NCBI RefSeq assembly: GCF_019059575.1
Contig: NW_024883495.1
Location: 1-64,000, forward strand
DNA from: Amphibalanus amphitrite
Taxonomy: Eukaryota; Arthropoda; Thecostraca; Balanomorpha; Balanidae
Length of the DNA stretch: 64,000 nucleotides
Direction of reading: 5' to 3'
The notes below the pieces were generated by a model, which worked only from the letters and a program-made list of their open reading frames with translations, was not told the DNA's origin and ran no database searches. Both the position numbers and the translations under genes were made by a program. This document shows, piece after piece, positions 326 through 54,184 of this stretch (its first letter is position 1; every line of letters starts with the position of its first letter).

Positions 326-1331
326 TTAACCGCGCACCGACGGGGGGGGCGGATATCCGCCCCCCTGAGGTTTTTCGCGGATAGCGGGAAAACCGCGGCG
401 CGTAGCGCCGCGAAATTGGTATGACTATTCTCATCAATTTTACACATGGTGTGCAAGTTTGAACCTCCTAACTTTTAGGTCAGGTCACCAGGTCACTTTG
501 AATGACCCAACCTCAAGTCACTTTTTTGCAACTTTGTCACCGTGCCAGAGCTACAGCAGATGTCGGAGGCCTTTGAAAGTCGCAGGATGTTATTAGGTCA
601 TTAGTAGCTACAATTTGTATATCTCGGAATTTTGATGTCGGTGACCTAAGGTCAGGTCCATTTCGCGACCTCCCCATTATAAGTCAATGGGGGAAAAATC
701 AACTCCCTGTTTTTACCACTAAAACGGGTCGGAATGGCCCCATATACCATACATGACTTCACATACGATCAACTTTCACTACCTTGAGGTCTGTTTTGCT
801 GTTGGGCAGCTGTAAGGTCATGTGACGTCATCAAAGGTCACCAAAGGTTTTTTGCCAATAACTCCTTACAGCAACAAGATACAGCCGCGCGGATGGTCTC
901 ATTGTGTTCAGCTCGTCAAGACGCATCGAATGATATACATGATGACCTCGAGGTCACGTGACCTGAGGTCAACCTTTGACCTTGACCTTTCGAGGTCAAC
1001 ATATATATCATTCGATGCGGATTGACGAGAGGATCACGATGATGCCCTTAGTTTGTTCCTATCTTGACTACTTCGAAAGTTATTCGAGAAAAACCCTCTC
1101 CATATCTAGCGCCGCCATTTTGACTTTTTCGACCCCTGTGACGTCATCTTTGACCTGACCTGAAAATGACCTTTGTAAAAATTGTAGACCTTGTCCGTGC
1201 GTATCCGATGCCGTTTACCGCTTGTCGCTATCTTGCTTCGTTCTCGAGATCTCAGGGGGGGGGGCGGTCATCCGCCCCCCCCCCCCCGTCGGTACTAAGT
1301 TGGCGCAGACCCCCGTCGGTGCGCGGGTTAA
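326..1331. mobile_element. piggyBac-like MITE, copy P1 (about 1.0 kb)
   Basis: The element is bounded by TTAA on both sides (326-329 and 1328-1331). The left end reads TTAACCGCGCACCGACGGGG and the reverse complement of the right end reads TTAACCCGCGCACCGACGGGG, so the ends are inverted repeats. TTAA target sites and CCC-starting termini are hallmarks of the piggyBac superfamily. G-run/C-run hairpins lie at 342-365 (GGCGGATATCCGCC core) and 1255-1287. On the right, about 17 bp separates the outer repeat from a second CCGACGGGGG copy; the left end has no such spacer. There is no transposase reading frame, so the element is non-autonomous. The interior is dense in AGGTCA/TGACCT words and has TGACGTCA near 824 and 1140 and a GGTCACGTGACC palindrome near 952. 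Confidence 0.8.
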
Positions 1332-2129
1332 GTAATAAAATGAAAATTATTAACAGGTTATTACCACATGCCGAGGTATCCCTTTAACATTAGCACGTGC
1401 ATTTGGGAAATGGCTTCGGCCCGCCTCGGCTAATGTTGAAGGTATTTGGGAAACGATTCGGCCCTAGGGCTTTTTGATTTTCCCAGACAAAATTTTACTG
1501 AATATTCTGAGCGGAAGAACCAATTTCAAAGAAGATATTTACGGATTGTGTGTTCACTAACAGTAACAGCAAAAGTAAGTGACTGCGTGTTTACTTACTT
1601 TTGCTGTCAACGTAATTCAACTAAACAAGGTTATCGTTCCAATGCCAATGTATTTATTGCTGCAGAACATGGTCGGAAATCGGAATAATAATTATTTCTA
1701 CATAATGCACGCAAAAAACGATCAATTTAAATGCGTGAAGCATCTTAACGTGCCACAATGAAACATTTGATATTGTTCCAGCCTTGGTTCCAGCTGGGAT
1801 CCAAGACGCGTTTGATTCAGCGTTTCGCCCAATTTTCAGTTTTCCTCACGGTTTCCTCACTCCTGCTGGACTCCATATCTTTATTCTAACTTCTGGCGCT
1901 TCACCATCTTCATCCTCAGCTTTTTCAAACCCTAAATAAGGGGGAAGTAGGAATTTCATCTTTCATACTCAACGCAGCCCAATAATGAAAAACACAAAAA
2001 ATAATCACGGTGACTATAAATATGAACATAGTACTGATATAATATTAACACAATATTAAGATTAAAGTGTAAAATATCAAATGAATATGATCTATTAACT
2101 GTTGCGCCGGTACGGCATGTGGTAAATCT
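1332..2129. other. AT-rich intergenic sequence with one hairpin
   Basis: No gene is supported. The one clear structure is a perfect 14-nt inverted repeat, CAGCAAAAGTAAGT (1567-1580) against its complement (1593-1606), with a 12-nt loop. A short degenerate direct repeat around ATTTGGGAAA...TTCGGCCC lies at about 1400-1470. Confidence 0.5.
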
Positions 2130-2266
2130 CTTCCCAACCTTGGGCTGTGAAAATGCAGTTTTATTCACCTCGGTTTTTGGCTACGGACCTCGTGCCTACC
2201 GGCACTCGGTCCTCCGCACAAAAACCTCGGTGAATAAAACGCATTTTCCCAGCCCGGGTCGGGAAT
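2130..2266. repeat. Small foldback (hairpin) element
   Basis: About 137 bp folds almost end to end on itself. The left arm, containing TTTTATTCACCTCGGTTTTT, is matched by an inverted copy in the right arm, and the centre (CCTCGTGCC...GGCACTCGG) is also palindromic. No target duplication is obvious. It looks like a palindromic MITE; no protein is encoded. Confidence 0.6.
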
Positions 2267-2414
2267 ATATATTATTACATGTGGGAGCACTGGCGCTGGA
2301 ACTTTCTCAATGTTGGAGCCGGGCTCGAGGCAGTTTGAACTCATTTCTTTCCATGCAACGCCATAGGGTAAATTACGAGCGAGCGGTGTCTTATGGTTTT
2401 TTAGATACCTATAT

Positions 2415-2955
2415 GACTTTTTACTTTTGACTTTTTCTTATTTGACGTTTTCCATTTGATTTTTATCATTTTGACTTTTTTGCCGTTTTTTCACTTTTTG
2501 TCTTTTGACTTTTCGCGTTTTTTGACTTTTTGCCATTTGACTTTTTGCTTTTGACTTTTTGCGTTTTTGACTTTTCGCCATTTTGACTTTTTGCCATTTG
2601 ACTTTTTTGCTTTTGACTTTTTTCGTTTTTGACTTTTCGCCATTTTGACTTTTTGCCATTTGACTTTTTGCTTTTGACTTTTTGCGTTTTTGACTTTTTG
2701 CCATTTTGACTTTTCGCCATTTGACTTTTTGCTTTTGACTTTTTGCGTTTTTGACTTTTCGCCATTTTGACTTTTTGCCATTTGACTTTTTGCATTTTTG
2801 ACTTTTGGACGTTTTGACTTTTTGCCATTTGACTTTTTGTCTTTTGACTTTAATCCGTTTTGACTTTTATCCATTTGACTTTTTTCCATTTGACTTTTAT
2901 CCATTTTGACTTTTTGCATTTGACTTTTTGTCTTTTGACATTTTGTCTTTTGACT
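2415..2955. repeat. TTTTGAC/TTTTTGCC minisatellite
   Basis: About 540 bp of degenerate tandem repeat built from TTTTTGCCATTTGAC and TTTTTGCTTTTGAC words, with a rough unit of 20-22 nt. One strand is almost pure T/G/C. On the minus strand all three frames read as Lys/Ser/Gln-rich chains because of the repeat, so these are not genes. Confidence 0.85.
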
Positions 2956-2961
2956 TTTTGT

Positions 2962-4790
2962 CCTGGAATCAGTGCATTCATATATTGAATCGCGGCACGA
3001 TATTCGCCATATTGCAGCCATTTCGTCACAGTGCAGGTTTAAAGTGACACAGGTTCAGGCATATTAGACATATCGCACATTATTCGTCAGATCGTTTCAA
3101 TTTCGGGGTCCCGCATGTAATTTAGGCACTGTTCAGTAAGACGGCATTGCATAAATAAATAATAACTATTTTTATTTGACATTTCACGCTACCTGAGCCT
3201 CCAATGACACTCGTAGTCAGTCAGCAACGCAAAAAAGTCAAGTAGCCAGCTGCACTGCTCTGGATGCAAGAGGTAAAGGGTATTTAATGTTTCATCTGGG
3301 TGTCTTAGCTTCAATCATATAAGACATAGTGCACATAATTCGTCGGGTGCTTTTATATTCGGCATGAGCAATATTTTTTCGGCTTTGTTCAATCAAATTC
3401 GCCATGATGCTGAAAGGCGATAACAAGAATCCATAGCATTTCTGATCTTTTTGAACCAGCAACGAAGTTATGCACCCGATTCAGAAGCCCTGAATGCCAC
3501 GTGACCGCCACTTGACCGTGTCACCGAGTTCTTAGAGCGAGACTAATGATAAGTTAATTCCTGAGAGCTGAAACTGCATTTGAGCAGGTTTTTGAACAAG
3601 ATTCACGCTACTCTTGACAGACAGATGGGGGCTTTCAAAAATATTTTCCCAATCTAGCAGCGAATTCACTTGAACATCGCCTAAATCGCTTTGCTGGACG
3701 CCGACTATCAGGCCACATGACGAAACCGTGCACGATGACGAAATTGAACCTACGGCTCACTGAATTTGAGCGCACCATCCTCTAAATTGATTGTTCTTCT
3801 TTTGAAACGTGTGCACTATTACCGAATATCATGCACTTGGCCGAACTAGAGGTGCGCTATGCCGAACTGTCGAAATCGGTTGCGCTATTACTGAACTGTG
3901 TGCACTATTTCTATATTTGGCCGTAAAAAGGTGTAGCGCATTTCACGTTCACGTGACATCCCACATTCTTCATTAGGTCCATAGCTTTGCTGAGGGCTTA
4001 AGTTGCGTAGGAAGGTGAGATTTGCTTACATAATCGATTATTTATACCGTGCTGGATTTATTTGAACATTGCCGTAAGCACATGCCGTATGTCGAAATTA
4101 AATTAAAGGGACCCTCCCACCTTAACATTAGATTTGAGTTGAGATAGCCAAAATGGGGTCCCTGGCTCACAATTACCGGTTTCGGCACTCACAACATCGA
4201 GAAATGCCTTAAATCGGAAATATTGAATTTCAAAATTGCAGCATTTTGATTCAGAGGGGCTAATGCTTAGGAATACCCCTCTGAATGTGTGACGTCAGCG
4301 CAGATATCTAACGATTTTTAAATGTTTGACTAAAACGTTTTGTAGCACGCGGTGGTATATGCTATTTGCGCGCAACATCTGCCGCAAACGCCGCACTCCT
4401 AAAATAAAGTCGCTAGAAACAGCTGAGATCCCAAAAAAGTAAACAAAAGTAAAAGTCTAATATCTTGAAAACCGGTGAATATTTTTCGGTGAAATTTGGT
4501 AGATATTCGTTTTCGCTCTTTCTGAACCGAGCGACATCACTTTCATGCCAATTCATAAACTTTTTTGAAGGTGGGAGGGTCCCTTTAACCTGACGAATTA
4601 TTATTTGCACTAAGTCCAATATGTCTGAACCTGGGCCACTTTTAACTACACTATGACGGAGTGGGGTGCACAATGACGAATATCGTGCCGCGATTCAATA
4701 TATGAAGGCACTATGCCGAACCGTCGAAATCACCTGCACTATTTTTGAAATGTGTGCACTTCCGCCTAAATTGGGCGTAAAAAGGTGTAG
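2962..4790. repeat. Degenerate composite element with inverted ends and internal repeats
   Basis: The segment at about 2965-3088 (containing TTGAATCGCGGCACGATATT) returns inverted at about 4589-4720. A block at about 3850-3939 is repeated directly at about 4706-4790; both share CTATGCCGAAC, GTCGAAATC, GTGTGCACT and end in GTAAAAAGGTGTAG. This is the outline of an old transposon with long inverted arms. A younger 486-bp MITE sits inside the right part. No transposase frame was seen. The word TAAAAAGGTGTAG also occurs in the element at 9382-9979. Confidence 0.55.
4103..4588. mobile_element. TTAA MITE, family M2, copy a (486 bp)
   Basis: The ends are TTAAAGGGACCCTCCCACC and its inverted complement, with TTAA as the presumed target duplication (4103-4106, 4585-4588). 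A near-identical copy of exactly the same length lies at 43017-43502 in the opposite orientation, differing at only a handful of bases in the parts compared, so the family has moved recently. The element is nested inside an older repeat. No functional reading frame is present; the short minus-strand frame over it occurs in both copies only because the DNA is duplicated. Confidence 0.85.
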
Positions 4791-5577
4791 ATGATGTCAT
4801 TACTCATTAGTCATTGTGCTCTGAAAATAATCAATATTTTCTTGAATGCAAAATTTCAGTCATATAGCTTGCTGTTTGCAGACTGCACATGTCTACTGTA
4901 GTATGCATTCTTTGTGTTCTAGCATGACAAATTTACAATCTGCATTAATTGCAAGTTGCAACATAGGTATGCTGGAGTACTCAGTCACTGCAGTCAATTG
5001 CCAGGGCACCTCATATGGCTCGTACATGGCACCCCTTCACGGCTCACGCTGGCCGGCCGGGCTCACCACCGACCCCCACGCTCGTGTCCGATCAATTTCA
5101 TATTTGCTTGCCTGTTTTGTTTTTGCCAGATCTTGCTATTAGCCACCTGTCAGGGCCCAATCTCACCAAGTGCGGTAAACCCATTTTGCGGTAAACTACC
5201 CCGCAGTCGATTAAGCTGGCAGCATGTTTGAACAATTATCATCAAACTGCGCTCGGGCCACCAGAGCTCTCAAATCGTTATGAGGCATCATCCAAGAACC
5301 TTGGTGATGACTTAATTAAGTTATGGCACTTTCACACAATGTCTGCTAAACGAAAATACGACATTTGGTTGTGAAAACTAGCAAAACTCGTTTGCCGTCC
5401 TCGGAAAACGAAATTGTTTCCCGTCCGTGACGTTTTTTCTCGCACTCTGATTGTGCTGCACAGTCAGCGATGTTTTATATCAATGGTGGGGATATTCCAT
5501 TGTCAAGCGCATGCTTGTTTGCAGCGAGTGGCGAGGTTTACGCTCTAGGCTAACCGCTTTGCCTGGTTTATTTCCAG
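4791..5577. other. Intergenic or 5' intron sequence upstream of the export-adaptor gene
   Basis: The next gene needs an upstream exon that ends with one base of the first Asp codon. I looked here for a short exon carrying the start of a UAP56-binding motif and found none that is convincing. The sequence is mixed AT/GC with no repeat structure of note. Confidence 0.4.
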
Positions 5578-8500
5578 ATGACTTCATCAAGGCGAACCGC
5601 GGGATGTTTCGGCGCGGCCGCGGCGGTGGCGGAGCCGGACGTGGATCAACTTCAACCAGAGGTATGTTACCATCCCGCCATTCCCCTCTGCTTGTCCCTC
5701 TGTACGTGTACTGCAATTCTAATAAAAGGTTCCAGAGATATGTTTCTCGTGAATACAGTTACCTAATCGGCTAATAGTGCTATTATGTCTAATATTCTTC
5801 TTAGATCTCAAACATCACGCAGACTGTGTAGCAAGGTGTTTCATTTACACGGTGATGCGATTCCACTTTCAATTTTACTAATGAGGTCATCTCAAGGAAA
5901 AAGTGAGCACGTGGGTGAGGACCGCTGCCGAAACAGGTTAGCTGCTCCACTTCGGACTGATAGCAATCTACCCAGACGCTGTGCAAATCCAATCCCTCTA
6001 TTATATCTCTGTCTACTGGCTACAATAATTTAGCCTGGGGTGCGGAGCCGGAGCCGGAGCTGGAGCCGGCATATTTTGCCCGGAGCCGGAACCGGAGCCG
6101 TGAAACAATAGTTACCTATAGCCCGAAGCCGGAGCCGTCAAAGAAGGGGGCGACTCCGGCTCTTTTTTAAGGAAAAAATTATTGACCTAGTTCGGTTTGA
6201 CTAGGCACTAAAACATGTGATATTCAAAATATGAAAATAGCCTTGTTATGCAAATACAGAATTAACCCTCGCCCGTATAGGGGGGGGGGGGGTCGAACGG
6301 ACCCCCCCCCCCCCTCGGTTTTTCGCGAATAACTCGCGTAAAAAGCGGCCGATCGCGACGAAACTTTCAGCACCCTCGCGTTAATCAATTTTACACCTAC
6401 CCTGAAATTTTCATGACCCTGACCCTAATGACCTTTGACCTGTGACCTACTTTTCGAGACCATGTTTGGCCGGAATCGCGATTCGGCGTATGTCTGCTCG
6501 CATTAGCCGCGCGTTTGCAGTCTTTTCGTGGTTTTAAGCGTTCAAACATGGGATATGATGCTGCTCCCATGCATTAGGGTGGGTGTCAAGTCAAGGTCAC
6601 CGGAAGGTCAGGTCAGGTCACTGACCTTTGATGACCTCGGTTCACTTTTTCGAGTTTTACACGTTTCTAGGCCAGTTTTTGGAGCTGAATTCGAATTTAG
6701 CAACCATATGAACATTTACGAAGTAGTTTTGGCACCTTCGTAACATGTTACGAAGCTGTCAGAGGTGGTTGCCACCTACTACGAATACCCTTACTGGTTG
6801 ACCTGACCTGACCTGACCCGACTTGGCCTAAATGCATGAAGACATCATCTGTGATCATAACTAACATGATATTCGTGATCAGCACCCCGAAAACCCCATA
6901 ATAGCCACGCTTTACGACTTTCTAACAGGTCCCGATTTTCCCGACTTTTGGGTCATTGACCTGACCTGGAAGGTCAACCGATGACCTAGGGCCTTAAAAT
7001 TGGGATCATCGGCTTCCTCTCGTCACGGGCAACACGCTCGCTTTTTCCGCGAAGCTCTAGCTCGATCTGGGGCGAAACGGCAAGGGGGGGGGGGTCCAAC
7101 GGACCCCCCCCCCCCCCTTATACGTTCGCGGCTGGAAAAACACCAATACGGGCGAGGGTTAACGTGCACCAATCCCATCGTCTTTTTTCTTCCACCCGTA
7201 TTTAATTGCATACTGCATAGGGGATGTACAGTCTGTCTTAAAAGTACCGCGCTAAGTGACGGTGGATCCATCAAGCCTGGCTGAGGAAGGGCCTACAAAA
7301 TTTGAGTCACCGAAGCAACTCACATCCTCGTCCATTCCCAAGGTCAATTGGTTCGGTGTCTTTCAAATTATAGCAGGCCCTACCTCAGTCAGGCTTGATG
7401 GATCCACCGTCACTTTGCGCGGTACTATTAAGACAGACTGTACTGAGTATTGGAGCCGGAGCCGCCGGAACCGGACCATTTTACTCGGAGCCGGAGCCGG
7501 AGCGGGAGCCGATTTTTTCTCCGGAGCCGGATCCGGAGCCGTCAGAAATTTCCACGGCTCTGCATCCCTGATTTTAGCACATGCTAATTTTGTGATGTTT
7601 GCAATATTGTCAGCTCAAAAAGATATCTTGTTGTTTTATTCGGTATACCTATCGGGTATGCACTGCATTGCTCCCCAATAGATCAAGGGACTAGTTACAG
7701 ATCGGCAGCTGTGACACGCCCCAGTGCCACGCACGCAGCCCAGTCGGACTGACGCCGGCTTCCCGAACCAGTTTGTAGATCTTCGTGCTTCGAACCCAAC
7801 GCTCCATCGAGCAGACACACGTGGATTTTGTGGCGCCGGCGTATCATTGATGCGTAACACATCGACAAACGTTGTGGTGTGTTCACTACTTCCGATGGCC
7901 ATTCGTCATTCGGGATTGTGTTTACGAGTATATAACACAACACAGACTGACAGAGCCATGAGCATAAGATTCAATACAAATATAGTAAAACATGAGACTT
8001 AGCAAGCTTTGCTTCCCGACGGACAACGGGATTTCTTATCGGTCAAAAAAAAAAATGCGTAATGTCTCTGACTGGTCCTGCCCTACCTCGAGCATATAAT
8101 GCCACGAAATAGTTTGATACGTTCGTCAGGCTTCCTTTGAAGAGAAAAATGGCAAAGAAAAATAACTAACCCGTGAGACCAGTAGCTGACCAATAGATTG
8201 TTAGCTGCCATCGTGTCCACCCGTCACCAACATCTGTCTGCCTCCTGCAGGTGGCCGGGGCCGCGGTCGGGGTCAGAGCCGCGGCCGGGGCACCTCCCGC
8301 GGCCGCTCGACATCGCGCGGCGCCTCGCGCGGCTCGGCTCGCGGCGGCCGCGGCAGCTGGCGCGAGGCGTCGCGGGACGGCCGGGCGGCGAGCACGCAGC
8401 GCGGGCGGGGGCGCGGCCGCGGCGCCGGCCGCGGTCAGCGCGGCGCCGCGCGCTCCACCAGCCGTGCCTCCTTCGGCCAGAAGTGGCGGGCGGCCAGCGC

Positions 8501-12987: not shown

Positions 12988-15900
12988 ACCAATGGCACTG
13001 CTGTCAATTTAGCAGCACTTTGATTATCCAACTACAGTTTGATATTCAGGGTGCGTCGATTTCGCCCAAACTTGCCCCAGGGACCAAGTCTGACACGCTG
13101 AGCACGAATCTGGGGCCGTATTCACGTCGATCATTTTCGTAAGAATTTTCTTAAGTTTGACCTACTTCTTAAGTAAATTTTTTTATTCACGTGAGCTCCG
13201 TCGATAAAAACTTAAGAAGTGTTGACGTGAATACCAAATTATACTTACGAAAGAAAATCGACTTACGAAGTCGACGTGAATACGGCCCCTGGTGTCAGAA
13301 ATCCGCTATTCTCAACCGATCACCCAAATTTACCGTTTTTGAGTTCGTCCATCTACAGATTGACAAACTCCAGGGGCCATCGATCTGGCCCAAAAATGGG
13401 TCTTAGGGACCAAGTCTGACACGCTGAGCACGAATCTGGTGTCAGAAATCCGCTATTCTCAACCGATCACCCAAATTTACCGTTTTTGAGTTCGTCCATC
13501 TACAGATTGACAAACTCCAGGGGCCATCGATTTCGCCCAAAAATGGGTCTAGGGGACCAAGTCTGACACGCTGAGCACGAATCTGGTGTCAGAAATCCGC
13601 TATTCTCGACCGATCACCCAAATTTACCGTTTTTGAGTTCGTCCATCTACAGATTGACAAACTCCAGGGGCCATCGATTTCGCCCAAAAATGGGTCTAGG
13701 GGACCAAGCGTGACACGCTGAGCACGAATCTGGTGTCAGAAATCCGCTATTCTTAACCGATCACCCAAATTTACCGTTTTTGAGTTCGTCCATCTACAGA
13801 TTGACAAACTCCAGGGGCCATCGATTTGGCCCAGAAATGGGTCTAGGGGATCAAATCTGACACGCTGAGCACGAATCTGGTGTCAGAAATCCACTTTTCT
13901 CAACCGATCACCCAAATTTACCGTTTTTGAGTTCGTCCATCTACAGATTGACAAACTCCAGGGGCCATCGATTTTGCCCAAAAACGAGTCTAGGGGACCA
14001 AGTCTGACACGCTGAGCACGAATCTAGTGTCAGAAATCCGCTTTTCTCAACCGATCACCCAAATTTACCGTTTTGAGTTCGTCCATCTACAGATTGACAA
14101 ACTCCAGGGGCCATCGATTTCGCCCAAAAATGGGTCTAGGGGACCAAGTCTGACACGCTGAGCACGAATCTGGTGTCAGAAATCCGCTATTCTCGACCGA
14201 TCACCCAAATTTACCGTTTTTGAGTTCGTCCATCTACAGATTGACAAACTCCAGGGGCCATCGATTTCGCCCAAAAATGGGTCTAGGGGACCAAGTGTGA
14301 CACGCTGAGCACGAATCTGGTGTCAGAAATCCGCTATTCTCAACCGATCACCCAAATTTACCGTTTTTGAGTTCGTCCATCTACAGATTGACAAACTCCA
14401 GGGGCCATCGATTTTGCCCAAAACTAGTCTAGGGGACCAAGTCTGACACGCTGAGCACGAATCTGGTGTCAGAAATCCGCTATTCTCAACCGATCACCCA
14501 AATTTACCGTTTTTGAGTTCGTCCATCTACAGATTGACAAACTCCAGGGGCCATCGATTTCGCCCAAAAATGGGTCTAGGGGACCAAGTGTGACACGCTG
14601 AGCACGAATCTGGTGTCAGAAATCCGCTATTCTCAACCGATCACCCAAATTTACCGTTTTTGAGTTCGTCCATCTACAGATTGACAAACTCCATGGGCCA
14701 TTGATTTTGCCCAAAAACGAGTCTAGGGGACCAAGTCTGACACGCTGAGCACGAATCTGGTGTCAGAAATCCGCTTTTCTCAACCGATCACCCAAATTTA
14801 CCGTTTTGAGTTCGTCCATCTACAGATTGACAAACTCCAGGGGCCATCGATTTCGCCCAAAAATGGGTCTAGGGGACCAAGTGTGACACGCTGAGCACGA
14901 ATCTGGTGTCAGAAATCCGCTATTCTCAACCGATCACCCAAATTTACCGTTTTTGAGTTCGTCCATCCACAGATTGAGTAACTCCAGCTGGCACTCAAAA
15001 ACGGTAAATTTGGGTGATCGGTTGAGAAAAGCGGATTTCTGACACTAGATTCGTGCTCAGCGTGTCAGATTTGATCCCCTAGACCTATTTTTGGGCCAAA
15101 TCGATGGCCCTGGAGTTTGTCAATCTGTAGTTGGACGAACTCAAAAACGGTAAATTTGGGTGATCAGTTGAGAATAGCGGATTTCTGACACCAGATTCGT
15201 GCTCAGCGTGTCACACTTGGTCCCCTAGACTCGTTTTTGGGCAAAATCGATGGCCCCTGGAGTTTGTCAATCTGTAGATGGACGAACTCAAAAACGGTAA
15301 ATTTGGGTGATCGGTTGAGAAAAGTGGATTTCTGACACCAGATTCGTGCTCAGCGTGTCAGATTTGATCCCCTAGACCCATTTCTGGGCCAAATCGATGG
15401 CCCCTGGAGTTTGTCAATCTGTAGATGGACGAACTCAAAAACGGTAAATTTGGGTGATCGGTTAAGAATAGCGGATTTCTGACACCAGATTCGTGCTCAG
15501 CGTGTCACGCTTGGTCCCCTAGACCCATTTTTGGGCGAAATCGATGGCCCCTGGAGTTTGTCAATCTGTAGATGGACGAACTCAAAACGGTAAATTTGGG
15601 TGATCGGTTGAGAAAAGCGGATTTCTGACACCAGATTCGTGCTCAGCGTGTCAGACTTGGTCCCCTAGACTCGATTTTGGGCAAAATCAATGGTCCATGG
15701 AGTTTGTCAATCTGTAGATGGACGAACTCAAAAACGGTAAATTTGGGTGATCGGTTGAGAATAGCGGATTTCTGACACCAGATTCGTGCTCAGCGTGTCA
15801 CACTTGGTCCCCTAGACCCATTTTTGGGCGAAATCGATGGCCCCTGGAGTTTGTCAATCTGTAGATGGACGAACTCAAAAACGGTAAATTTGGGTGATCG

Positions 15901-16197
15901 GTTGAGGATAGCGGATTTCTGACACCAGATTCGTGCTCAGCGTGTCAGACTTGGTCCCCTAGACTAGTTTTGGGCAAAATCGATGGCCCCTGGAGTTTGT
16001 CAATCTGTAGATGGACGAACTCAAAAACGGTAAATTTGGGTGATCGGTTGAGAATAGCGGATTTCTGACATCAGATTCGTGCTCAGCGTGTCAGACTTGG
16101 TCCCTGGGGCAAGTTTGGGCGAAATCGGCGCACCCTGAATATCAAACTGTAGTTGGATAATCAATCTGCTGCTAAATTGACAGCTGTACCAATGGCA
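12988..16197. mobile_element. Foldback transposon with 147-bp satellite arms
   Basis: A 3190-bp inverted structure (12998-16187) is flanked by the direct repeat ACCAATGGCA (12988-12997, 16188-16197), a 10-bp target duplication. The outer ends match as inverted repeats (GCTGTCAATTTAGCAGCA, then TTGATTATCC, then CAAACTTGCCCCAGGGACC). Inside, a unit containing TGACACGCTGAGCACGAATC repeats at 147-bp spacing: about 12 copies on the plus strand (about 13090-14985), then about 8 inverted copies (about 15000-16110). The inversion point is near 14985-14995. No transposase is visible. The architecture resembles Foldback elements of flies, which have tandem-repeat arms and 9-bp duplications. The right edge ends 233 bp before the importin beta start codon. 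Confidence 0.85.
13112..13289. mobile_element. Small palindromic MITE inside the first satellite unit
   Basis: The inverted ends GGGGCCGTATTCACGTCGA and TCGACGTGAATACGGCCCC bound about 178 bp rich in CTTAAG and CTTACGAA words. It interrupts the first satellite unit: the spacing from the first TGACACGCTG to the next is 147 plus about 181 bp. Target duplication is ambiguous because the ends overlap the host CTGG. No coding capacity. Confidence 0.75.
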
Positions 16198-16420: not shown

Positions 16421-19400
16421 ATGATATCCGAATCAGCTGGACAGCTTATTCAAATCCTAGAGAAGACAGTTTCGCCTGGTAAGTAAAAGTTTTCTTCCAT
16501 TTCATGTTTGACTGAATTCTTATCATGCTATTTTATGTTTGATGTGATAACATACCTAATTGTGTTGATGTCAATATCATCAGTCTCCTCTTGATAACGT
16601 GATTCAGATTAGACGCTTTTACATAGGGTTTGTTGCAAGCTTATATCTCCGTCCTTGATGTTGCAAAAGATGCCAATGGTGCTTAACAATTTACAAAATG
16701 ATCCCCTCTAAATATTTGAAAACCACTGCATCAAAATTATTGCCAAATAAACGAGCTAGAGCATCGTAAAAAATGTTATGTATACGCGACTATTGTTGCT
16801 GGGCCTGACATAGGTCCTTACTTCATACTTGTTGTATTTTTACCTGTTGTTTTTTAACTTTGCATAATCTCTGAATATTTATGCCTATGGTGTCCTGGAT
16901 GAACTGCTTTTTCCTGTTAACATTTCAACGATTGCTGAATTTAACAATTTGTCACACACTACAAGTTTACTCTGGTGGAAAGGAAATGATTTTGCAGATG
17001 CATCAATGTCAGATGGGGATGGTGCACAGGATTAAATCATTGAATATTACTTAAGCTAATTTTTATTGAAGAAATTTGGTTTGTTACCTACCTATTTATT
17101 TGACAACATTTGTTGCCACGAAGTACTGCTTGAAAATTCACGTGTGAGGTTGGTTTATGTTTCTGGAAAGACAACCTACTCTTAAATTAAGAAGTTTAAA
17201 AATAAAATCATTTTTAATTTTGCTAAAAAATGCATATATCATTCCCTTGCTGTCTTAATTCAAAGTCTTCTAATGAATGAAGCTTTTTTGTTCTTCACAG
17301 TTATGCATTAGTAATAAAGATACATTTTAGATAGTCCAAATAATTTGTGAAATATATTTGCTGCAGTAAAACTAAGTTGGCAAAACTTATTTTGCATCCT
17401 TCTTCCTAGCCTGGGGCATTTTTGTGATTTGAAACCTGCCATTGGTGTGCTTCCATTCTAGATACCCCTCTCTGAAATTGCACTTCTTGATTCCAAAGGT
17501 TGTAACATTGCAAATTGTAGGATATTGACAATCTCACTATAAGCTGGTTTTGCCCATGGCTCATTATTCAGGATGACTGTCAACTGATCCACTGCTCCTA
17601 GATTACTGCAATTTAGGATGTTTTCTAATTATTTCAGCTTACAACTATTCCTATACTGTTCTCCTAATTTCAGAAGTGTTATATTGCTGACCTGAAATGA
17701 TGAAAATGTACATTTTGACAGATGTGATTAGATGGTCAATTACCTTACATTGCCTTAGCTTAAAGTAGAGCCATAAGAATTAGAATAGTCATTTTTATAG
17801 CACCTTACACAATTAGGCATTCTTTTTCAGATAAGGCAGAACTGGAACAAGCTCAGCAGTTCTTGGAGCAAGCAGCATCACAAAACTTTGTAAGTAATGG
17901 CCATGTGTAAATGGTGGCAATTTGATGACTGGTCCATGGTCGCCTTTGTGGTGAAGCACACTTTGCTATTGAGTGTGCATTAAGGAAGCATTTTTTTTTA
18001 TTTGGCATAAAGCAATCACAGAACTTCTGGAGTATTTGCTTCTTCTGGAGCAAATACACAGTGCTTTAATGCTCAGTGTATTTGCACATAATCAGTGATT
18101 GACAGTTTTCTGTTATTTGTTATACATGATTTCTCATTTTATCGTTTGCTCCTGTAATATCTCCATGTCTCTGGCTCCTGTAATGTCTCCATGTCTCTGA
18201 CACCGGGCCACGGCCCGCGCTCTGTCCACAGCCCGAGTACGTGAAGGCGCTCTCGGACATCCTGTACCATGGCGCCAACAGCCCGGTGGCTCGGATGGCG
18301 GCCGGCCTGCAGCTCAAGAACACGCTCACCTCCAAGGACACCACCGTGCGCGCCATGCACCAGCAGCGCTGGCTCGACTTCCCTCCCGACGTCAAGGAGC
18401 ACGTCAAACGAAACGTGAGCGGCGCTCGGTGGACCGCGTCGGGTGGAGGCGGGGGAAAACAAACGACGGGCGCGGGTCGGGGAGACACTGCGGAAAAAAG
18501 AGTGGCCGATTGTTTTTCCCTCACGTTCTCGTGCCTTTTGGAAAGGTGTTTGTGGGGCGTTTACGTTCATCATCATCATCATTTATTTCGTATGACCTCC
18601 GCATGTTCACGGCTTTTCGGCTCAAGTGTCAAGTTTACAGTAAGAACATAAAAACACAGCAGTTACACAAAAAAGATGTAAAGAAATGCTAAATGACACA
18701 GAGATAAAACAGTGCCCCCACCCACCCCAATCCCCACCCCCACCCAGTGAGTAAGTTGAAGTTGTACGTACAACATTGTCCTGACGCATCATGTAGATAA
18801 CGTTGTGGCAGCGCATGCAACCTTATCTACACGTTGCACACGCTGCTTGCAATCATGCCCATATTCATTGTGCCTCTGCTGCTGCATTAAGTATTAACTA
18901 TTCCATGTTTTGTTTTTAAATAAATCTTCTCACTCATCCACCCCTGTTCAGATTCTGGCGGCGCTGGGCACGGAGAACAACCGTCCGAGCTCAGCGGCCC
19001 AGTGCGTGGCCTACATCGCCATCGTGGAGCTGCCGCAGAACCAGTGGACCGACCTGGTGTCGGTGCTGGTCAACAACGTCATTGGGCCCGGCTCCACCGA
19101 GATCATCAAGGAGGCGTCGCTGGAGGCCATCGGATACATCTGCCAGGTGGGCTATGGGCGGCTGGTGGAGGTTATGAGCGGCTGGCAGGGTTATGAGCGG
19201 CTGGTGGGGGTTGATGAGCTGCTGGTGGGAGTTTATGAGCTGCTAGTGGAGGTTTATGAGCGGCTTGTGAGCGGACATGGGGGGTTTCCAGGAGTGTATC
19301 ATAATGTGTGTACCGGGGTAGTGTAACGGAAGCATCTACACTCGGAAACGTTGTATTGCTGTCGCTACCGTCGTTTACCACGATGCCACTGTCGCTGTCC

Positions 19401-29346: not shown

Positions 29347-30308
29347 TTAACCCTCGCACGACCAGGCCATTTCTCATAACACGAACGATCAGGGGGGGGG
29401 GGGGGTTGTTACGACCCCCCCCCCCTGGCGTTTCGAAACGGAAGGTCGTAGAGCTTAGCGGAAAAAACCAACGGATTGCTCTCAACGAGATCTCGCGATT
29501 GGTGGTATATTTTTTGGTCCTAGGTCAACATTTGACCTACTTATGACCGGTCAAAGGTCAAATTTTCCGAAAAAATCAAACTTTTTCAACTTTCCGCGGC
29601 GATTGCGGCAAAACGGTGGGAGATATCGACTTGAAACCTTCACTATCGTGTTCCTTGATCAATTCTCTATCGTTTGGTATGTATTTCGTTTCCCTAGCTC
29701 TAAGAATGGCGCGTTGGGAGCGCCGGAAGTCGGCAAGGTCACAGTCGGCGGCAGAAATTCAAAAAATCAAAATTTAAATTTTTGAAATCTGATTGTATTT
29801 TTGGATTTGGGAGGTCCATTTGCTCCCTATAGAAGCTAATATTGCTGCATATTCCCATTGAGGTGACAAGAATTAGCAAAATAGTGGTTCGGGCGCTTTT
29901 CAAAAATAGTACCGGACGCTGTTCCTCTTGTGACGTCATAGCTCCGTGACCTGACCTGACCCGGTCAATTTTCTTGCACCACACGATAGCCAATGCTTGC
30001 CCCAACATGCATGGGAAGTTTCATCATGATCCATCAAACAATGTGGGTATCACCGGCAGAAAACCTAGGGATTCGGCGCACACGTTTGGTAACTGTCGGC
30101 CGGAGGCTGTACCTCTTATGACGTCATAACTCCGTGACCTGACATGACCCGATCAATTTTTTTTCGGCAAAAGATGCGCAAAGGTTGCCCCAGAGGGTAT
30201 TGAAAATTTCAGCCCGCTACGACAAGCCGTTTAGCGTGCACTTCGAAAAAACCTCAGGGGGGGGGGGGGTTGATACAACCCCCCCCCCCCTAGGCGTTCT
30301 AGGGTTAA
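29347..30308. mobile_element. piggyBac-like MITE, copy P3 (962 bp)
   Basis: It has TTAA at 29347-29350 and 30305-30308. The ends are TTAACCCTCGCACGACCAGG (left) and TTAACCCTAGAACGCCTAGG (reverse complement of right). The outer match is limited to CCCT plus scattered bases, so this copy is more diverged. G-run/C-run hairpins are at 29392-29425 and 30257-30290 (GGTTGATACAACC). Here the spaced terminus is on the left, so P3 lies in the opposite orientation to P1, P2 and P5. TGACGTCA occurs near 29931 and 30119, and TGACCTGACCTGACC near 29948. No transposase. Confidence 0.75.
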
Positions 30309-31345: not shown

Positions 31346-31354
31346 GGAGGTTTC

Positions 31355-31520
31355 AATTGATCAGGGACCCACCAGGTGACCAGGGACCCCTCTGATAACC
31401 AGGGGTCCTTCCAGTAACCAGGGACTCCTTCAATAACCAGGGGCCCCTCAGTAAACGTGGGCCACTCAGGTTACTGCAAGAGACAGGAGTCCCTTATAAC
31501 CAGGGACCGGCAAGGTCTCT
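31355..31520. repeat. AACCAGGGACCCC tandem repeat
   Basis: About six degenerate copies of a unit near 25 bp around TAACCAGGGGTCCTTCCAG, merging into the next minisatellite. Confidence 0.6.
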
Positions 31521-34045: not shown

Positions 34046-34052
34046 TATGTCA

Positions 34053-35236
34053 TTAACCCGGCAGGCGGTGGGCCTACCAGCCACCTTCCGCGCGGTGGGG
34101 GGGGGGCATTTTTTTGCCCCCCCCCGTATCTCCGAAACTACTGAACGGATCCGGAAAATTCAAACGGCGTTCGATAGCCCTGTCAAATTTGTCGAGGGAA
34201 ACCAAATTTCATTGACCTCGGGGTCACCGATGACGTCACAGGTCAGGTCAAAGACAAAATGTTTCACCGTTCACGGGGCTTCTAGGGAAAGCGCTATAAC
34301 ACCGAGTAAAACGCATTTTGTCGAAAATCAGCGATGAGGCGTCAGTTGTCTAGTACATATGTTGCTATTAGAGGTCACCGGTCATACCAGGTCAGGTCAC
34401 CAAAGGTCACCAAGGGTCACCACATGAGCCCAACTTTACTAAGGTTATGCGATGCATGTTTTATGGCCAGTTTTTCATTTCCAACTCAATGGTGTTGGTT
34501 ATAAGACCATCAGGTACGGTTAAGGTCACTTTCTGGTGGAGGTCAGGTCAAGGTCAGGTCAAAAAAGGTCAAATTTCAAAGTTGATATTTTTGCATAAAA
34601 TGGGTATCGAATCAATGCAGCTCGTCACGGGGAGTCTAATGGTGGTCTTTGTTTTGCGCTACGAGGTCTAGAATTGCTAAAAATTGAGTTTGAAAATTTG
34701 ACGTCATCAATTTTGAACAGTTTTTTCGCTATAACTTGGCCAAAAAAAGAGGTATCGATCTCAAATTTGGTATGTAGATAGAAGGCGGTAGGTACTATCA
34801 CATATATTCCGGTTTTTTCGAAATTCAAAAAAGTGTTTGGATTTTTCGGCTATTATATTCGAAAAATCTATTTTTTGATTTTTGGGGGTCAAAATCCAAA
34901 AAAATCGAAAAACCGAAATAGCAGTTTTGTAGCCCTTTTGATTCCACACCTTTTATGTCTGAAACATTTTTATGTATCTCTAAAGCTGTAGGCCTGACAG
35001 CTCTTCCCGCGAAACTTTTTTTTGGGTCGAAAATGGCAAAAATGACGTCACTCTGACGTCATTAGCGGCCAACCTATCATAGCCATTGGAAAAATTTTTG
35101 GTCACCATGTGCGCTAGCTGCTCCCGGGAGGGTACTGAAAGTTTGGTGACGATCGGCGCAGCGGTTCTCGAGATATATCGAAAAAACTAAAGGGGGGGCA
35201 AAAAATTGCCCCCCCCCCCACCGCCTGGAAGGTTAA
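34053..35236. mobile_element. piggyBac-like MITE, copy P4 (1184 bp)
   Basis: It has TTAA at 34053-34056 and 35233-35236. The ends are TTAACCCGGCAGGCGGTGGG and, inverted at the right, TTAACCTTCCAGGCGGTGGG. Hairpins lie at 34097-34125 (GGGGCATTTTTTTGCCCC) and 35192-35219. The left end is the spaced one, with about 20-25 bp before a second GCGGTGGGG. The interior has AGGTCACCAAAGGTCACC at about 34400, a four-base-spaced direct repeat AGGTCAAAAAAGGTCA at about 34555, and three TGACGTCA sites. Its right TTAA is also the left TTAA of the next MITE. No transposase. Confidence 0.82.
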
Positions 35237-35791
35237 AGGAAATAGTTCACTTTCACGAAATTATTTTTTTTTTTGCAATGATTTATTATTTTTTATGTTC
35301 AAAATAATCAGCAAAGAAAATAAAACCTTTTTATAACAAAAGATTTTTTTCTATATTTTGATATAGGAAGAACTTTTCAGTTTCTGTAAGGCACACGCGA
35401 TCCAGTATGAAAAGAGCATGGCTCCCGAAAATTCTTCAGAAACAGAGAAATTATCGCAGCCACCGGCATTTGGGCGATCTGCTCGATCTGATAATGTTCC
35501 CCTGAATGTCCTAATTGATCAGTACGAGAATTTCTCTAGAGTTCTCGTAGATAATTTCTCTAGTTTCTGAAGAATTTTCGGGACCCCATGCTCTTTTCAT
35601 ACTGGATGGAAATATATGCAAGGCACACATCCTCAACGCAAGACACCTTTTTCGGGACGAGAAATAGAATATCTTTGCCTAGGGTGATCGTTGGGCTGTA
35701 AAAGCTCCTGATTTATGCTCGTCTCAGCCCAAGCTACGGAACTGCTATTCCAGTTCAAAACCCATGTTAAAAAGTGAACTATTTCCTTTAA
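35233..35791. mobile_element. TTAA MITE, family M3 (559 bp)
   Basis: The ends are TTAAAGGAAATAGTTCACTT and its inverted complement, with TTAA at 35233-35236 and 35788-35791. A second internal inverted repeat pairs about 35399-35455 with about 35555-35610 (arms contain CCAGTATGAAAAGAGCATGG and GAAAATTCTTCAGAAAC). Non-coding. It abuts P4, sharing one TTAA. Confidence 0.8.
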
Positions 35792-38700
35792 CACCGGATG
35801 GGAATTACATGGAACAACAAGGAACAGGTTACCAGCACTTCAAATGAGAGCAGCATTAGAGTATACAGCATAGATGTATTTGTAAAACAGCATAGATGTA
35901 TTTACCTCGGACGCTTTATGCATCCCGCGCTGCGTGCATTGAAATTTGAAGCCTACAGGTGGCGTCAATAATACCGAACATTCCGAATAGCGATTACTAG
36001 CATGCTGTTTATCGTACCGCTGCTTGGTGTAAGGCTGTGGAAAATTGAAATAATGCGTCTAGACAAGGGTATGTTTTTCTTATACCGTTATTGATAGGAC
36101 TAGCTCTGAAAACAATTGAAAAACAACCGAGAATAATTGAATGAATGATGTTATTCTGTCAATACCCACATGCTTATCACATTTTTACAACGGTTAAATA
36201 ATTTTGCATCATTGCAACATGCATCAGGTATTTGTTTTCTGGTCCGTACCTCAAGGCTGTCCTCGCCCCCCCCCCCCCCCCCTATAGGCTATATCTGACC
36301 ACAACAGACATTATTGACCCCAACCGCTGTGATTAAACGCCGCCTGAGCAATTCAGGCCGCCAATCCATCACGCAGAGGCACCGGCCCCAACGAGGGGCC
36401 GTTTCAGTTTAACAGGGTGCCGCCGGGTCCATTACGTCCCGCGGCGGAAGTGCCGGCCGGCGCTCTCCCGTGTGCGTTGCGCCAGTGTCGGCCTCCGGGA
36501 GAGGTTAATTAGCACTCCTGGATCGGCGCGCGTCGCGTTCATGCGTCACACGCACCTGTTTAATTACATGTTTACCTGCGGCGGGAGGCGGCGCTATCAC
36601 GGCTGGTTAGGTGACGGGATGTCTGTCTGTCGGCACTGGCTGGCTGGCGTGTTTGGTAGGCAGCGGCTGTCAGTGACGGTCGTGTCAGTCTGTTAGAGCG
36701 GTGAGAACCACCCACTGACTGTCAGTCAGAGTCGATACTACCACCCATGTACTGTCAGTCAGAGCGGTCAGAACTTGGTCAGAATCGCCCGGCAGCTGCA
36801 CGCTGGTGACCGGTGGAGTGGGAAGGGGTAACGATATCAGAACAGTCACAACCCGTTCGAAACAGCCAGAGTCGTGGCATAAAGGAATGAGCGGGGTGAA
36901 GTGAATCTTTTTTTCTCGTTGACTGGACTTAACATGGGATCATGAAAGAGCTAACTATAAAATAGAAATAATGAATGCTTATATGATATATTATTCTTAA
37001 AGCTAGGCCTTTTTAACGGATGCATGCTGGTAATTGCCTCATGATATTCTGGCAAAAATACTTACAATCAAACCCTAGCCCTGTCTTTTACTTCCGCAAC
37101 TCAACCACTGGTTTAATGTTTTGATTCACAAAAGCCTTCTGCCATTACAGGCGTGAGTGCACAGCAAGAGCGTGACGCCGATATCCTTCCTGTCGATTAG
37201 CCGAGACGAGACGACACACCGTTCAAGTTGATACGAACATGATTACATCGTAAAGTGCCCTTCTGAAAACGGTGTGAGCTGAAGCGACCGTTGAGAATAG
37301 TGTGAATCTCCACCGGACAAAGAATAACCATGTCGTACACGACGTGGCTCTAACTGCCTTCACCGTTTGCGCACATGTCGAGCCCGGGTTGTGAGAACGG
37401 CGAGGCGACCGTGTCGTCATCCAGGAACCGCTGAGCTTGTTACGGCCGCGACCAGACGCTCGTAGCTGCGAAACAATAGATCGTAGAAACTGCGACCATA
37501 GAAACAAGTGAATGTGAAATCACTGCGGCAGTCTGTGGATTGTGATTGTGATTGAGCGCCCATGGTTAGTGGGCGTACGAGTCCGATTGTCGAAACGGGT
37601 GATAACTAGGTGCCCAAGGAAAAGCCAGTGGTGGGCGTGCTCGTCTTGAATATACAGTTTTATAATTTGTGAGGAATGCAAACTTATATGTTCATAGCTG
37701 TGCGATGCAACATACATGTGAATTGTGCAATAAGATAATACTCGTACAACGTTTAACAGCATGAATAGGACATATTTTGAGGTATTTCGCTTCCTTCGTT
37801 TTTCTTATAGGTAATTACGTCAATAATCACGCCTAACGGTAACTTGATTACCGGCGACCACCAAACCAGTGTTGTGCAAGGCGCTTATTAATTCCGTATG
37901 GAAATGTCACAGCGGCGGGCGGTCACCTGGGAGCGTTACCTCACTGTGCTGGGACAGCCGGCAGCGCGACCGGCGGCCGCCGCGTGCCGCAAATCACTCC
38001 CGCTGGCGAGAACATGCCCATTATCGACCCGATTGGTCCACGACCAGACATATTAGCGGTTTTACGAGCCCGGCGAGCACCCGAGGCAGTCCAAGTAAGA
38101 TGTGCGCGACCTGATCGGAGATCTGATCTGGCCATCGGAGCACACTTCGTCCCGGGAAGCGTCGACTCACGGTGATGGGCGCGTCGTTTTTGGCTCGTGC
38201 GCCGCACGTCGCCCCAGTTGCGCCAATTTTGGATGATGGACGGTATGGGCGAGTCTGGTCGTTAGGGTAGAGATGCCGTTTGGGAAAACGGTGGTCGAGT
38301 TTACGAAATGCCCGGCGTCGGTAGCTTTGTTCCTGGCGGGGGGCAGAGACGGTGCAGTATATGCCTTATTACACGTAATTAGAGTAAAGTGATGACCTTC
38401 CCAGGGGCAAAGCGTGTCTGATGTACATACACATGTAATTATGCATTACGGCGCTTACTTTCATGAGCGATTTAATCAGTGCCGACAGAAGAAATGCTAT
38501 CCGGCGGACAGATCCAGCTCTGCGGGTCCATTCCGATTAAAATTCATTCATTTCAAACAGGAGTCTTGTCTTTATGGAAGGTCAGTGTCATTAGCTTACG
38601 TTAGGGTTTGTTCGTGATATTTCAACTACCGTCACGGTAGCTTTTACAGTGCTTTCCAACCCCCGATATTACCATCAAATTTTTGTGACGACCTTTTCGT

Positions 38701-39173
38701 CACCCTGACGGCGCACCAAGCCATATCTATACAAATTAATACTCTGTTTATCGTGTGGTCGCCGGTGTTATCATCCCTATTGTTCGTCATAGTGAAATAT
38801 TTCACACCAACACTCGTCTGTCCGTGGTAAGCGCTAAGGAACAAAAGACCAATCAAGAATGGAGCACGGCCTACGCCTTTGACCGGTCACAAGTTCACCG
38901 TCCTACTGTCATGTTGTTGATGATGGAAACAATGCCGATAGAAGACCGATAAAGCATGTTCCTCGTAGAAAAGATTTGTCTTTTAATCTTAATGGGCTCC
39001 CATTAATTTACCACTGCTTGTTGGACTCGCTATCAGGATCCGAAAAGGCCATCTTCAGTCTTGTTTATTGCGGCTTTTGCTGCGAGCGAGTGCTTCTTGT
39101 ATCTATGGGCGTCAAGGTGCCTTTTCTCGAAAGGAGATGCAACATATCAACCGTCCTGGCATGCATGTAAGCA
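35792..39173. other. Unassigned intergenic region with GC-rich islands
   Basis: A C-run lies at about 36266-36282, followed by a GC-rich island at 36340-36680. A short direct repeat (ACCACCCA...CTGTCAGTCAGAG, twice) spans about 36708-36768. Another GC-rich island is at 37900-38210. The islands could be regulatory. No exon is supported on either strand. Confidence 0.4.
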
Positions 39174-43502: not shown

Positions 43503-47545
<4,043 letters not shown>

Positions 47546-50090: not shown

Positions 50091-50131
50091 TAAATATACA
50101 CAAATAATACTCTGCACTACCCTCAGTGTTA

Positions 50132-53274: not shown

Positions 53275-54184
53275 TTAACCCTCGCCCGCACATGGGGGGG
53301 GGGGGGTTGCCACCCCCCAGGCAGTCTTTCTGCTCTGCACTCAACATTTTTAGAGCTAGAAGGCTGATTTTTCGTATAGCTGCTTGTCTATCCTTTCTTG
53401 ATGTCCACTGAAAATTTCAAGTTTCTGTGATTTTTGGTTTCGGAGATATGACCTTGTTTTTCAGGTCATGTCATGACCCAAATGGCCAATTCTCAACATC
53501 TTGCGTTTGTCATGGGCCTTGTGAGCTTTTGACACCCTGATTTCGGCCTTTTTTGCCAATCTTACCTCCCACCTATCATGGAACATGTTGTTCGACGATG
53601 TACAGGGGTCAAGGTCAGGGTCAAGGTCAACCTAGGTCATCTAAGATAATTGCGTTTTAGGCAAGCTGAATTTACTTTTTGTGAAGTTTTTTGACTGCAT
53701 TTTTGGTAAAAGCTTCTCAGATCATGATTTCATGTGATATGGACCCAAAAACAATCGGTGCACACATCAGTATACACACAGACACACACAGACATACAAA
53801 CACATATAATTGACCTTGACCTAACTTGACCTGAAATGACCTCAGCAGCAAAATTCTGGTCGGATAGTGTGACAAAGAGGTTCTAGCTGGCTTGACACCA
53901 GAAAACAGCATCGTCATCGGTATTTGATAAGCAGCGCACTTGATATCCAACGGTGACCCAAAACAGCAACATTTTTTAGTTTGACCTGACCTGGAAGGTC
54001 AATGACTGACCTGAGAAGGTAAAACTGGGTATCATTGGATTCGTCTCTTCCCAAAGAATCTTTTTGGTCTTTACTGCTAAGCTCTATCTCCAACAGGAAC
54101 GAAATGGCGCGGGGGGGTGGCAACCACCCCCCCCCCCCATGTGCGTTCTAGGATGGGAAAATGGCATGTGCGGGCGAGGGTTAA
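53275..54184. mobile_element. piggyBac-like MITE, copy P5 (910 bp)
   Basis: TTAA at 53275-53278 and 54181-54184 with perfect inverted termini TTAACCCTCGCCCGCACATG. Hairpins lie at 53294-53318 (GGGGTTGCCACCCC) and 54111-54138 (GGGGTGGCAACCACCCC). The right end has a spacer of about 20 bp between the terminus and a second CGCACATGGGG; the left has none. The interior has GGTCAAGGTCAGGGTCAAGGTC near 53610 and TGACCTTGACCTAACTTGACC near 53811. No transposase. Confidence 0.85.

What the first reader, a model, noticed from the sequence alone, without database searches (positions are those of the whole stretch)
326..54184. Five piggyBac-like elements share a G-run/C-run hairpin and one spaced, one unspaced terminus
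P1 (326-1331), P2 (6262-7162), P3 (29347-30308), P4 (34053-35236) and P5 (53275-54184) all have TTAA ends and CCC-starting termini. In each, one end goes straight from the terminal repeat into a long G run, a short loop and a C run; the other end repeats the inner part of the terminus after a spacer of about 17-28 bp and then has the same hairpin. Canonical piggyBac also has one end with a short spacer and one with a long spacer before an internal repeat, so the asymmetry fits transposase recognition. The inner terminal sequence differs between copies while the architecture is kept, implying several co-existing subfamilies. I know of no described MITE family with G/C hairpins in this position.
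Basis: partly seen in the sequence, partly recalled or inferred. Interest (0 to 1): 0.85.

Follow-up and report, generated by a model that had tools for sequence, protein, structure and literature searches.

The report
piggyBac-type elements with G/C-run terminal palindromes
Five short jumping-gene copies in this animal genome belong to large families of non-coding passengers of a piggyBac-type transposon, whose ends carry long runs of G and C where the well-known moth piggyBac has its protein-binding palindrome, and some families seem to have traded their end sequences at those runs.

Summary
All five elements have TTAA and a G-run/core/C-run palindrome at both ends (10 palindromes, 0.03 expected). 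One end is unspaced (G run starts 16-19 nt from the start of TTAA), the other spaced (44-46). Each has at least 40 near-full-length copies, window copy included. Five transposases, grouped with 100/100 support, all lie between such ends; for one (L050) the ends were looked for because of the tree and found. P3 looks like an internal-deletion derivative of one of these elements. The group is nearest Trichoplusia ni piggyBac, whose ends are likewise offset by 27-28 bp and whose palindromic internal repeat binds the transposase's cysteine-rich domain; the G/C palindrome sits in that place. What seems new is the form of the palindrome, and mosaicism: in two pairs, bodies 90-100% identical up to the palindrome carry tips only 51% alike. 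Binding of the palindrome, and recombination at the runs, are inferred. Doubling forward-strand pattern counts gives about 34,000 unspaced and 39,000 spaced ends genome-wide.

The parts
326..1331 (.). P1, non-autonomous piggyBac element, 1006 bp; left end unspaced, right end spaced
   Evidence: TTAA at 326 and 1328; 40 of 40 scored copies near full length, window copy included, 98-99% apart from itself
342..365 (+). P1 unspaced-end palindrome G8-CGGATATCCG-C6, 16 nt after the start of TTAA
1255..1287 (-). P1 spaced-end palindrome; tip and duplicated inner box occupy 1288-1331
   Evidence: offset 44 in 10 of 10 further copies
6262..7162 (.). P2, non-autonomous piggyBac element, 901 bp; left end unspaced, right end spaced
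   Evidence: TTAA at 6262 and 7159; 40 scored copies, window copy included, 94-96% apart from itself
6280..6314 (+). P2 unspaced-end palindrome
7084..7117 (-). P2 spaced-end palindrome; tip 7118-7162
29347..30308 (.). P3, non-autonomous piggyBac element, 962 bp; left end spaced, right end unspaced; looks like an internal-deletion derivative of the transposase-bearing element at G000:C44:1060842-1064816
   Evidence: TTAA at 29347 and 30305; 40 scored copies, window copy included, 98-99% apart from itself; P3 1-320 and 566-962 match the two ends of C44 at 92.5% and 98.0%
29392..29425 (+). P3 spaced-end palindrome; tip 29347-29391
30257..30290 (-). P3 unspaced-end palindrome
34053..35236 (.). P4, non-autonomous piggyBac element, 1184 bp; left end spaced, right end unspaced
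   Evidence: TTAA at 34053 and 35233; 40 scored copies, window copy included, 96-98% apart from itself
34097..34125 (+). P4 spaced-end palindrome; tip 34053-34096
35192..35219 (-). P4 unspaced-end palindrome
53275..54184 (.). P5, non-autonomous piggyBac element, 910 bp; left end unspaced, right end spaced
   Evidence: TTAA at 53275 and 54181; 40 scored copies, window copy included, 98-99% apart from itself
53294..53318 (+). P5 unspaced-end palindrome
54111..54138 (-). P5 spaced-end palindrome; tip 54139-54184

Best explanation
P1-P5 are non-autonomous piggyBac elements mobilised in trans by transposases of one group related to Trichoplusia ni piggyBac. Each end is a recognition module: TTAA, a CC(C) tip, an inner box of about 11 bp and a palindrome. 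The unspaced end has the box once. The spaced end has it twice, 27 bp apart, before the palindrome. By analogy with T. ni piggyBac, the transposase core would read tip and box, a dimer of C-terminal cysteine-rich domains (CRDs) would bind the palindrome, and the extra box at the spaced end would seat a second transposase dimer. In this lineage the palindrome consists of long G and C runs around a short family-specific core. Shown: TTAA ends, spacing, copy number, transposase-bearing relatives with the same kind of ends, and P3's two ends on one of them. Inferred: the binding itself, trans-mobilisation, and that the elements can still move.
For: Spacing: at 71 G/C palindromes in the window and the loci then held, 65 distinct termini with TTAACC within 100 nt; offsets 16-19 (30) or 43-50 (35), none between. 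With looser runs and more loci, searched to 60 nt, 168 termini split 84/84 (it includes the 80 ends fetched as known copies). The box shows one self-shift peak, at 27 bp, in 18 spaced-tip representatives, two of them P2 variants (0.596 against 0.24-0.35 at other shifts from 18 to 33; best shift 27 in 12 of 18). Transposase-bearing relatives: 5 of 5 in the group lie between such ends (C44, C1173, C33, C778, C702). In 7 of 7 other piggyBac families with both ends located, no G/C palindrome in the 70-90 nt printed. Protein, T. ni piggyBac 6x67 against piggyBat 9c0f in bits: L048 268.6/109.8, L058 195.4/77.9, L036 255.3/96.9; outside the group L022 41.6/99.6, L009 77.2/111. D268, D346, D447 and D450 of T. 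ni (counted off the alignment) are conserved in 5 of 5 group proteins. Foldseek of the AlphaFold2 model of L048: best 6x67, 6.6e-37. Place: the mean centre of the palindrome is 24-31 bp after TTAA in the unspaced families except two single copies (34.0, 35.5); T. ni CRDs are centred at about bp 25 (that this numbering starts after TTAA is recalled). The palindrome extends beyond the runs: the first three core pairs are symmetric in 32, 22 and 28 of 43 against expected fractions 0.44, 0.27 and 0.31.
Against: No binding or transposition was tested. G-run length varies from 6 to 17 between copies, so the centre of the palindrome is not fixed to the base as in T. ni. A near parent was found only for P3; P2 has a relative (C778, 85-90% in most pieces), P4 a weaker one (C702, 77%, against 84% for its relative Q28); P1 and P5 have only partial matches to these. 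The CRD loop between the second and third cysteine is 21-23 residues against 11 in T. ni, so the DNA-binding mode may differ, and the CRD is weakly predicted in the model. The fourth core pair is not symmetric beyond expectation (14 of 42 against 0.26).
Confidence: 0.85

Rival explanations
1. The G/C runs are by-products of slippage: a short GC palindrome is the real CRD site and the run length is neutral.
For: Within each family the core is nearly constant while run lengths vary; mononucleotide runs slip readily (general knowledge).
Against: In the 40 further copies of P1-P4 the detected G runs were never shorter than 6 (the scan required at least 4 and copies were chosen by similarity, so decayed runs may be under-represented), and G/C runs recur across 18 spaced-tip representatives. 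Compatible with the best explanation as a refinement.
Confidence: 0.4
2. The runs act as nucleic-acid structures (cruciform, G-quadruplex, RNA hairpin) rather than as a protein-bound palindrome.
For: They are strong inverted repeats next to the ends; long G runs could form other structures (general knowledge).
Against: The palindrome sits at fixed offsets from TTAA like those of T. ni, shifts by 27 bp together with the inner box, and was seen at the ends of one transposase group only, among those with ends located; a free structure needs none of this. I ran no folding test.
Confidence: 0.1
3. Tips differ between elements with matching bodies because tips evolve fast under co-evolution with transposases, with no recombination.
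For: Coral CMITEs also have bodies more conserved than their TIRs (PMC2872659, parts 1 and 2 of 4 read).
Against: P1 and the element nested in C702 are 90-100% identical in each of fifteen 20-bp blocks inward from the palindrome, yet 51% in the tip; P4 and the element in L045 are 90-95% in 12 blocks against 51%. The tip of the C702 element recurs many times in the genome.
Confidence: 0.15

Closest known systems
piggyBac of Trichoplusia ni (transposase structure 6x67/6x68)
   Same: TTAA target, DDD transposase, CRD with the same order of zinc ligands, palindromic internal repeat just inside the tip, one end with a 17-bp insertion plus a duplicated box, shift of 27-28 bp between ends (PMC7351741, passages and section 9)
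   Different: Palindrome made of G and C runs of variable length, not the 19-bp repeat with an A-tract; tip sequences differ; CRD loop between Cys2 and Cys3 is 21-23 residues, not 11; an estimated 34,000-39,000 ends of each kind, largely on non-autonomous copies by inference
piggyBat of Myotis lucifugus (9c0f)
   Same: piggyBac superfamily, repeated motifs at the left end (PMC11707139, passages)
   Different: The three group transposases searched are more distant from it than from T. ni piggyBac; piggyBat has no matching palindrome on its right end
CMITE families of Acropora corals
   Same: TTAA MITEs tied to piggyBac, several tip families on a conserved body (PMC2872659, parts 1-2 of 4 read)
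   Different: About 100 bp long; no G/C runs and no fixed joint between body and tip mentioned in the parts read

Membership tests
piggyBac superfamily | TTAA at both ends (target duplication) | tested here: met
   5 of 5 in the window, 40 of 40 further copies
piggyBac superfamily | CC(C) terminal motif in inverted orientation | tested here: met
   10 of 10 ends in the window; 8 of 10 read CCC, P1 left reads CCG and P4 right CCT
piggyBac superfamily | DDE_Tnp_1_7 (PF13843) DDD transposase in members with the same kind of ends | tested here: met
   C44, C1173, C33, C778, C702; catalytic aspartates conserved in 5 of 5
T. ni-type piggyBac | asymmetric ends with a duplicated inner box and 27-28 bp shift | tested here: met
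   against PMC7351741
T. ni-type piggyBac | palindromic internal repeat at both ends, centred near bp 25 of the unspaced end | tested here: met
   means 24-31 with two exceptions; the sequence is unlike the T. ni repeat (recalled)
T. ni-type piggyBac | CRD binds the palindrome | not testable with these tools
   inferred from CRD similarity
T. ni-type piggyBac | transposase nearer T. ni than piggyBat | tested here: met
   3 of 3 group proteins searched; the two others searched are nearer piggyBat
MITE | no transposase gene, high copy, homogeneous length | tested here: met
   at least 40 copies each, close to the query in length; the ORF listing gave one run of 120 aa or more touching an element, at the left end of P4 and mostly in its flank; it was not compared with transposases
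MITE | usual size under 500 bp (PMC2872659) | tested here: not met
   901-1184 bp; better called non-autonomous piggyBac elements
piggyBac superfamily | mobility (empty sites) | tested here: inconclusive
   a nested G/C-palindrome element in C778 sits at a TTAA that is undisturbed in P2; no second individual was available

The most novel reading that the evidence does not exclude
The G/C runs work as joints. Because every tip module ends in the same kind of run, recombination or template switching at the runs can swap a whole recognition module (tip, box, palindrome core) onto another body, letting a successful non-autonomous body change the transposase it follows. This would be modular exchange of specificity in a DNA transposon through a shared low-complexity seam.
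Probability: 0.35. Interest if true: 0.75.

Novelty: new variant of a known kind. Interest (0 to 1): 0.55.

Why it matters
The puzzling left/right asymmetry of piggyBac is kept almost to the base pair across 18 spaced-tip representatives with different sequences in one genome. This is a natural experiment on what the transposase complex needs: spacing and a palindrome, not one given sequence. It also offers several transposases with matched ends, including open frames of 666 and 683 codons, for testing how the CRD recognises a palindrome, and a test case for how non-autonomous elements change partner.

Tried and rejected
The first look among the best PF13843 matches (L009-L038) showed G/C palindromes near some transposases but none recognised as a pair around its own. 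The partners appeared only when body similarity was followed and flanks were extended. L028 looked like a transposase-bearing G/C element but is a 604-aa piggyBac without G/C ends nested in one. C1726 (L059) has two neighbouring G/C elements that do not enclose its transposase. My first C778 and C392 composites used the wrong strand and were redone. I first read the P4/Q28 similarity beside L050 as a neighbour; it proved part of L050's own element, so the search for L050's ends was not fully blind. An idea that an Arg before the first CRD cysteine (T. ni Tyr558) reads the G run was dropped: several proteins outside the group (L009, L010, L015) have Arg there too. Viral contigs: 3 and 3 pattern matches, which look by eye like unrelated hairpins; no relative of the transposase. 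A genome-wide mid-gap control for the spacing did not complete, so the absence of intermediate offsets rests, which see only termini with TTAACC and runs of at least 6 or 5. Ends were not located for 11 of the 25 transposases in the tree and only one end for L037, so 'no G/C palindrome outside the group' covers 7 families.

Full report
What is there. The five elements are present as described. Each is bounded by TTAA and each end carries a G run, a short core and a C run. These are the only 10 palindromes that the G6+/C6+ scan of the window finds; simulations give 0.03. For each element the genome search scored 40 candidates, the window copy included, and all 40 are near full length: identity apart from the window copy P1 98-99%, P2 94-96%, P3 98-99%, P4 96-98%, P5 98-99%. 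These are lower bounds; the first look gave 1,541 to 6,751 candidates. In 40 other copies (10 each of P1-P4; no P5 copy was fetched) TTAA is at both ends in 40 of 40 and the palindrome at 80 of 80 ends. The offset is 17-18 or 44-45 in 78 of the 80 and 49 and 51 in the other two (both P2); the core is nearly constant within a family and the run lengths vary.

Spacing. At 71 palindromes in the window and the loci held, 65 distinct termini have TTAACC within 100 nt, at offsets 16-19 (30) or 43-50 (35). With looser runs, more loci and a search to 60 nt, 168 termini fall at 16-20 with two stragglers at 24 and 27 (84 in all), or at 43-51 with one at 57 (84); this set includes the 80 ends fetched as copies of P1-P4, so it is not independent. 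Genome-wide, the unspaced pattern matches 16,844 times on the forward strand with 0 for the reversed control, and the spaced pattern 19,315 times with control 2. Reverse-strand counts (53,540 and 60,349) are inflated by multiple starts in the C run, so I double the forward counts: about 34,000 and 39,000 ends, an estimate. A count at intermediate spacing was requested repeatedly and never answered. The inner box is repeated at the spaced end with one peak at 27 bp (18 representatives, two of them P2 variants; 0.596 against 0.24-0.35 at other shifts; best shift 27 in 12, 26 in 3, 28 in 2, 22 in 1). The paper on the T. ni structure says that RE63 has a 17-bp insertion and a duplication relative to LE35, with RE bp 34-63 almost identical to LE bp 7-35 (PMC7351741, passages). 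The spacing agrees to about a base pair although the sequences differ.

Transposase-bearing relatives. PF13843 gives 116 matches, all 116 scored of 232 candidates. Body similarity led to C44 and C1173: P3 1-320 and 566-962 flank a transposase at 92.5% and 98.0% in C44, 92.9% and 96.2% in C1173, in elements of 3975 and 3977 bp with P3's ends. C33 (4723 bp, 666-codon frame) and C778 (P2-like flanks at 85-90%, one 47-bp piece at 98%; its right TTAA reads CTAA) also have both ends. In a tree of 25 representatives, the rows of these four elements and L050 stand on one side of a branch with 100/100 support (the root is the midpoint, and the label of the four rows alone needed 2 changes because L050 lies among them). 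L050's ends were not known to me; its flanks showed a spaced end at offset 44 and an unspaced end at 17, 5973 bp apart, with 15 of 16 tip letters alike. That region holds nine palindromes, so some pairing was likely by chance, but the relative Q28 matches at exactly these two ends (1-127 at 82.6%, 157-1142 at 84.5%). So 5 of 5 members have such ends. Of the other 20 rows, 8 rows (7 families; L012 through its near-copy L019) have both ends located and show no G/C palindrome there; L037 has one end located; 11 are unresolved, one of which (L062) groups with L051 and L053. The last part of L047 is out of frame relative to its relatives, and C778's frame lacks the N-terminal part.

Protein. The group is nearer T. 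ni piggyBac than piggyBat (268.6, 195.4 and 255.3 bits against 109.8, 77.9 and 96.9 for L048, L058, L036), the reverse of L022 and L009. The AlphaFold2 model of L048 (mean pLDDT 75; the CRD weakly predicted) matches 6x67 best. The CRD ligands follow the T. ni order, with 21-23 residues between the second and third cysteine against 11 (4 proteins with the domain in frame). In T. ni a CRD dimer binds the palindrome at bp 17-33, centred near bp 25, and bends it. Here the unspaced palindromes have mean centres at 24-31 bp, 34.0 and 35.5 in two single copies, and their symmetry extends about three pairs inside the runs (32, 22, 28 of 43 against 0.44, 0.27, 0.31; the fourth pair, 14 of 42, is near the expected 0.26). 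Some other piggyBac families of this genome show different palindromes just inside one tip (L009, L035, L053/C531; seen by eye). I therefore take the G/C palindrome as this group's version of the internal repeat. That it is bound is inference.

Mosaic tips. P1 and an element nested in C702 are 90-100% identical in all fifteen 20-bp blocks going inward from the palindrome, while their tips are 51% alike and the palindrome cores differ. P4 and an element in L045 show 90-95% in 12 blocks against 51% (the 13th block is the end of the fetched DNA). P2 and C778 show 75-100% over five blocks, where a nested insertion follows, against 57%. Among 23 spaced-end representatives, 16 pairs have bodies at least 75% alike and 10 of these have tips below 70%; among 16 unspaced ones, 7 and 4. 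The opposite case, tips at least 75% alike with bodies under 60%, is 1 of 10 and 1 of 8. The pairs are not independent. The P1/C702 body is not a single accident: a body motif next to the palindrome occurs 4,050 times at spaced ends (2,002 + 2,048, control 0; no letters returned). On contig C1, 21 places are listed. Matching them by eye with the lettered lists gave 9 with P1-type tips (4 at the spaced end, 5 by the partner unspaced end) and 5 with the other tip (2 and 3); 7 could not be assigned. The break at the spaced end falls in the G run. At the other end of the C702 element the similarity to P1 stops about 277 bp inside, not at the palindrome, which fits a replaced segment. Exchange at the runs is the simplest reading, but the mechanism and its frequency are unproven.

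Limits. One individual, one assembly, unnamed species. Copy counts are lower bounds or estimates. Literature: open-access text searches only (listings, abstract beginnings and the passages or sections cited).

Noticed in passing
326-1331, 6262-7162, 29347-30308, 34053-35236, 53275-54184: GGTCA/TGACC motifs are 8.6 times denser in the five elements (87, 17.5 per kb) than in the rest of the window (120, 2.0 per kb), in clusters spaced by roughly 175 bp. They resemble nuclear-receptor half-sites (recalled); role unknown.
   Followed up: partly
13289-16104: Two arrays of a 147-bp satellite in opposite orientation, arms up to 740 nt, 94-99% complementary.
   Followed up: no
18184-23359: Stretches that encode parts of importin beta (2 of 5 frames tested match Pfam, one tested matches importin beta-1 structures).
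   Followed up: no
L022-L032: A second piggyBac family without G/C ends has 11 copies with a 604-aa open frame, about 99.3-100% identical, hence probably recent activity.
   Followed up: partly
L081; flanks of P2 and P4 copies: Elements insert side by side at the TTAA of another element's tip: 3 of the 40 copies abut another tip, a fourth is doubtful (by eye); in L081 two unspaced ends share a TTAA.
   Followed up: no
L009, L035, L053: Some piggyBac families of other types have non-GC palindromes just inside one tip (seen by eye).
   Followed up: no
46288-46491 and 31379-32630: A perfect 204-bp GA repeat, and a field of diverged repeats of about 19-21 bp.
   Followed up: no
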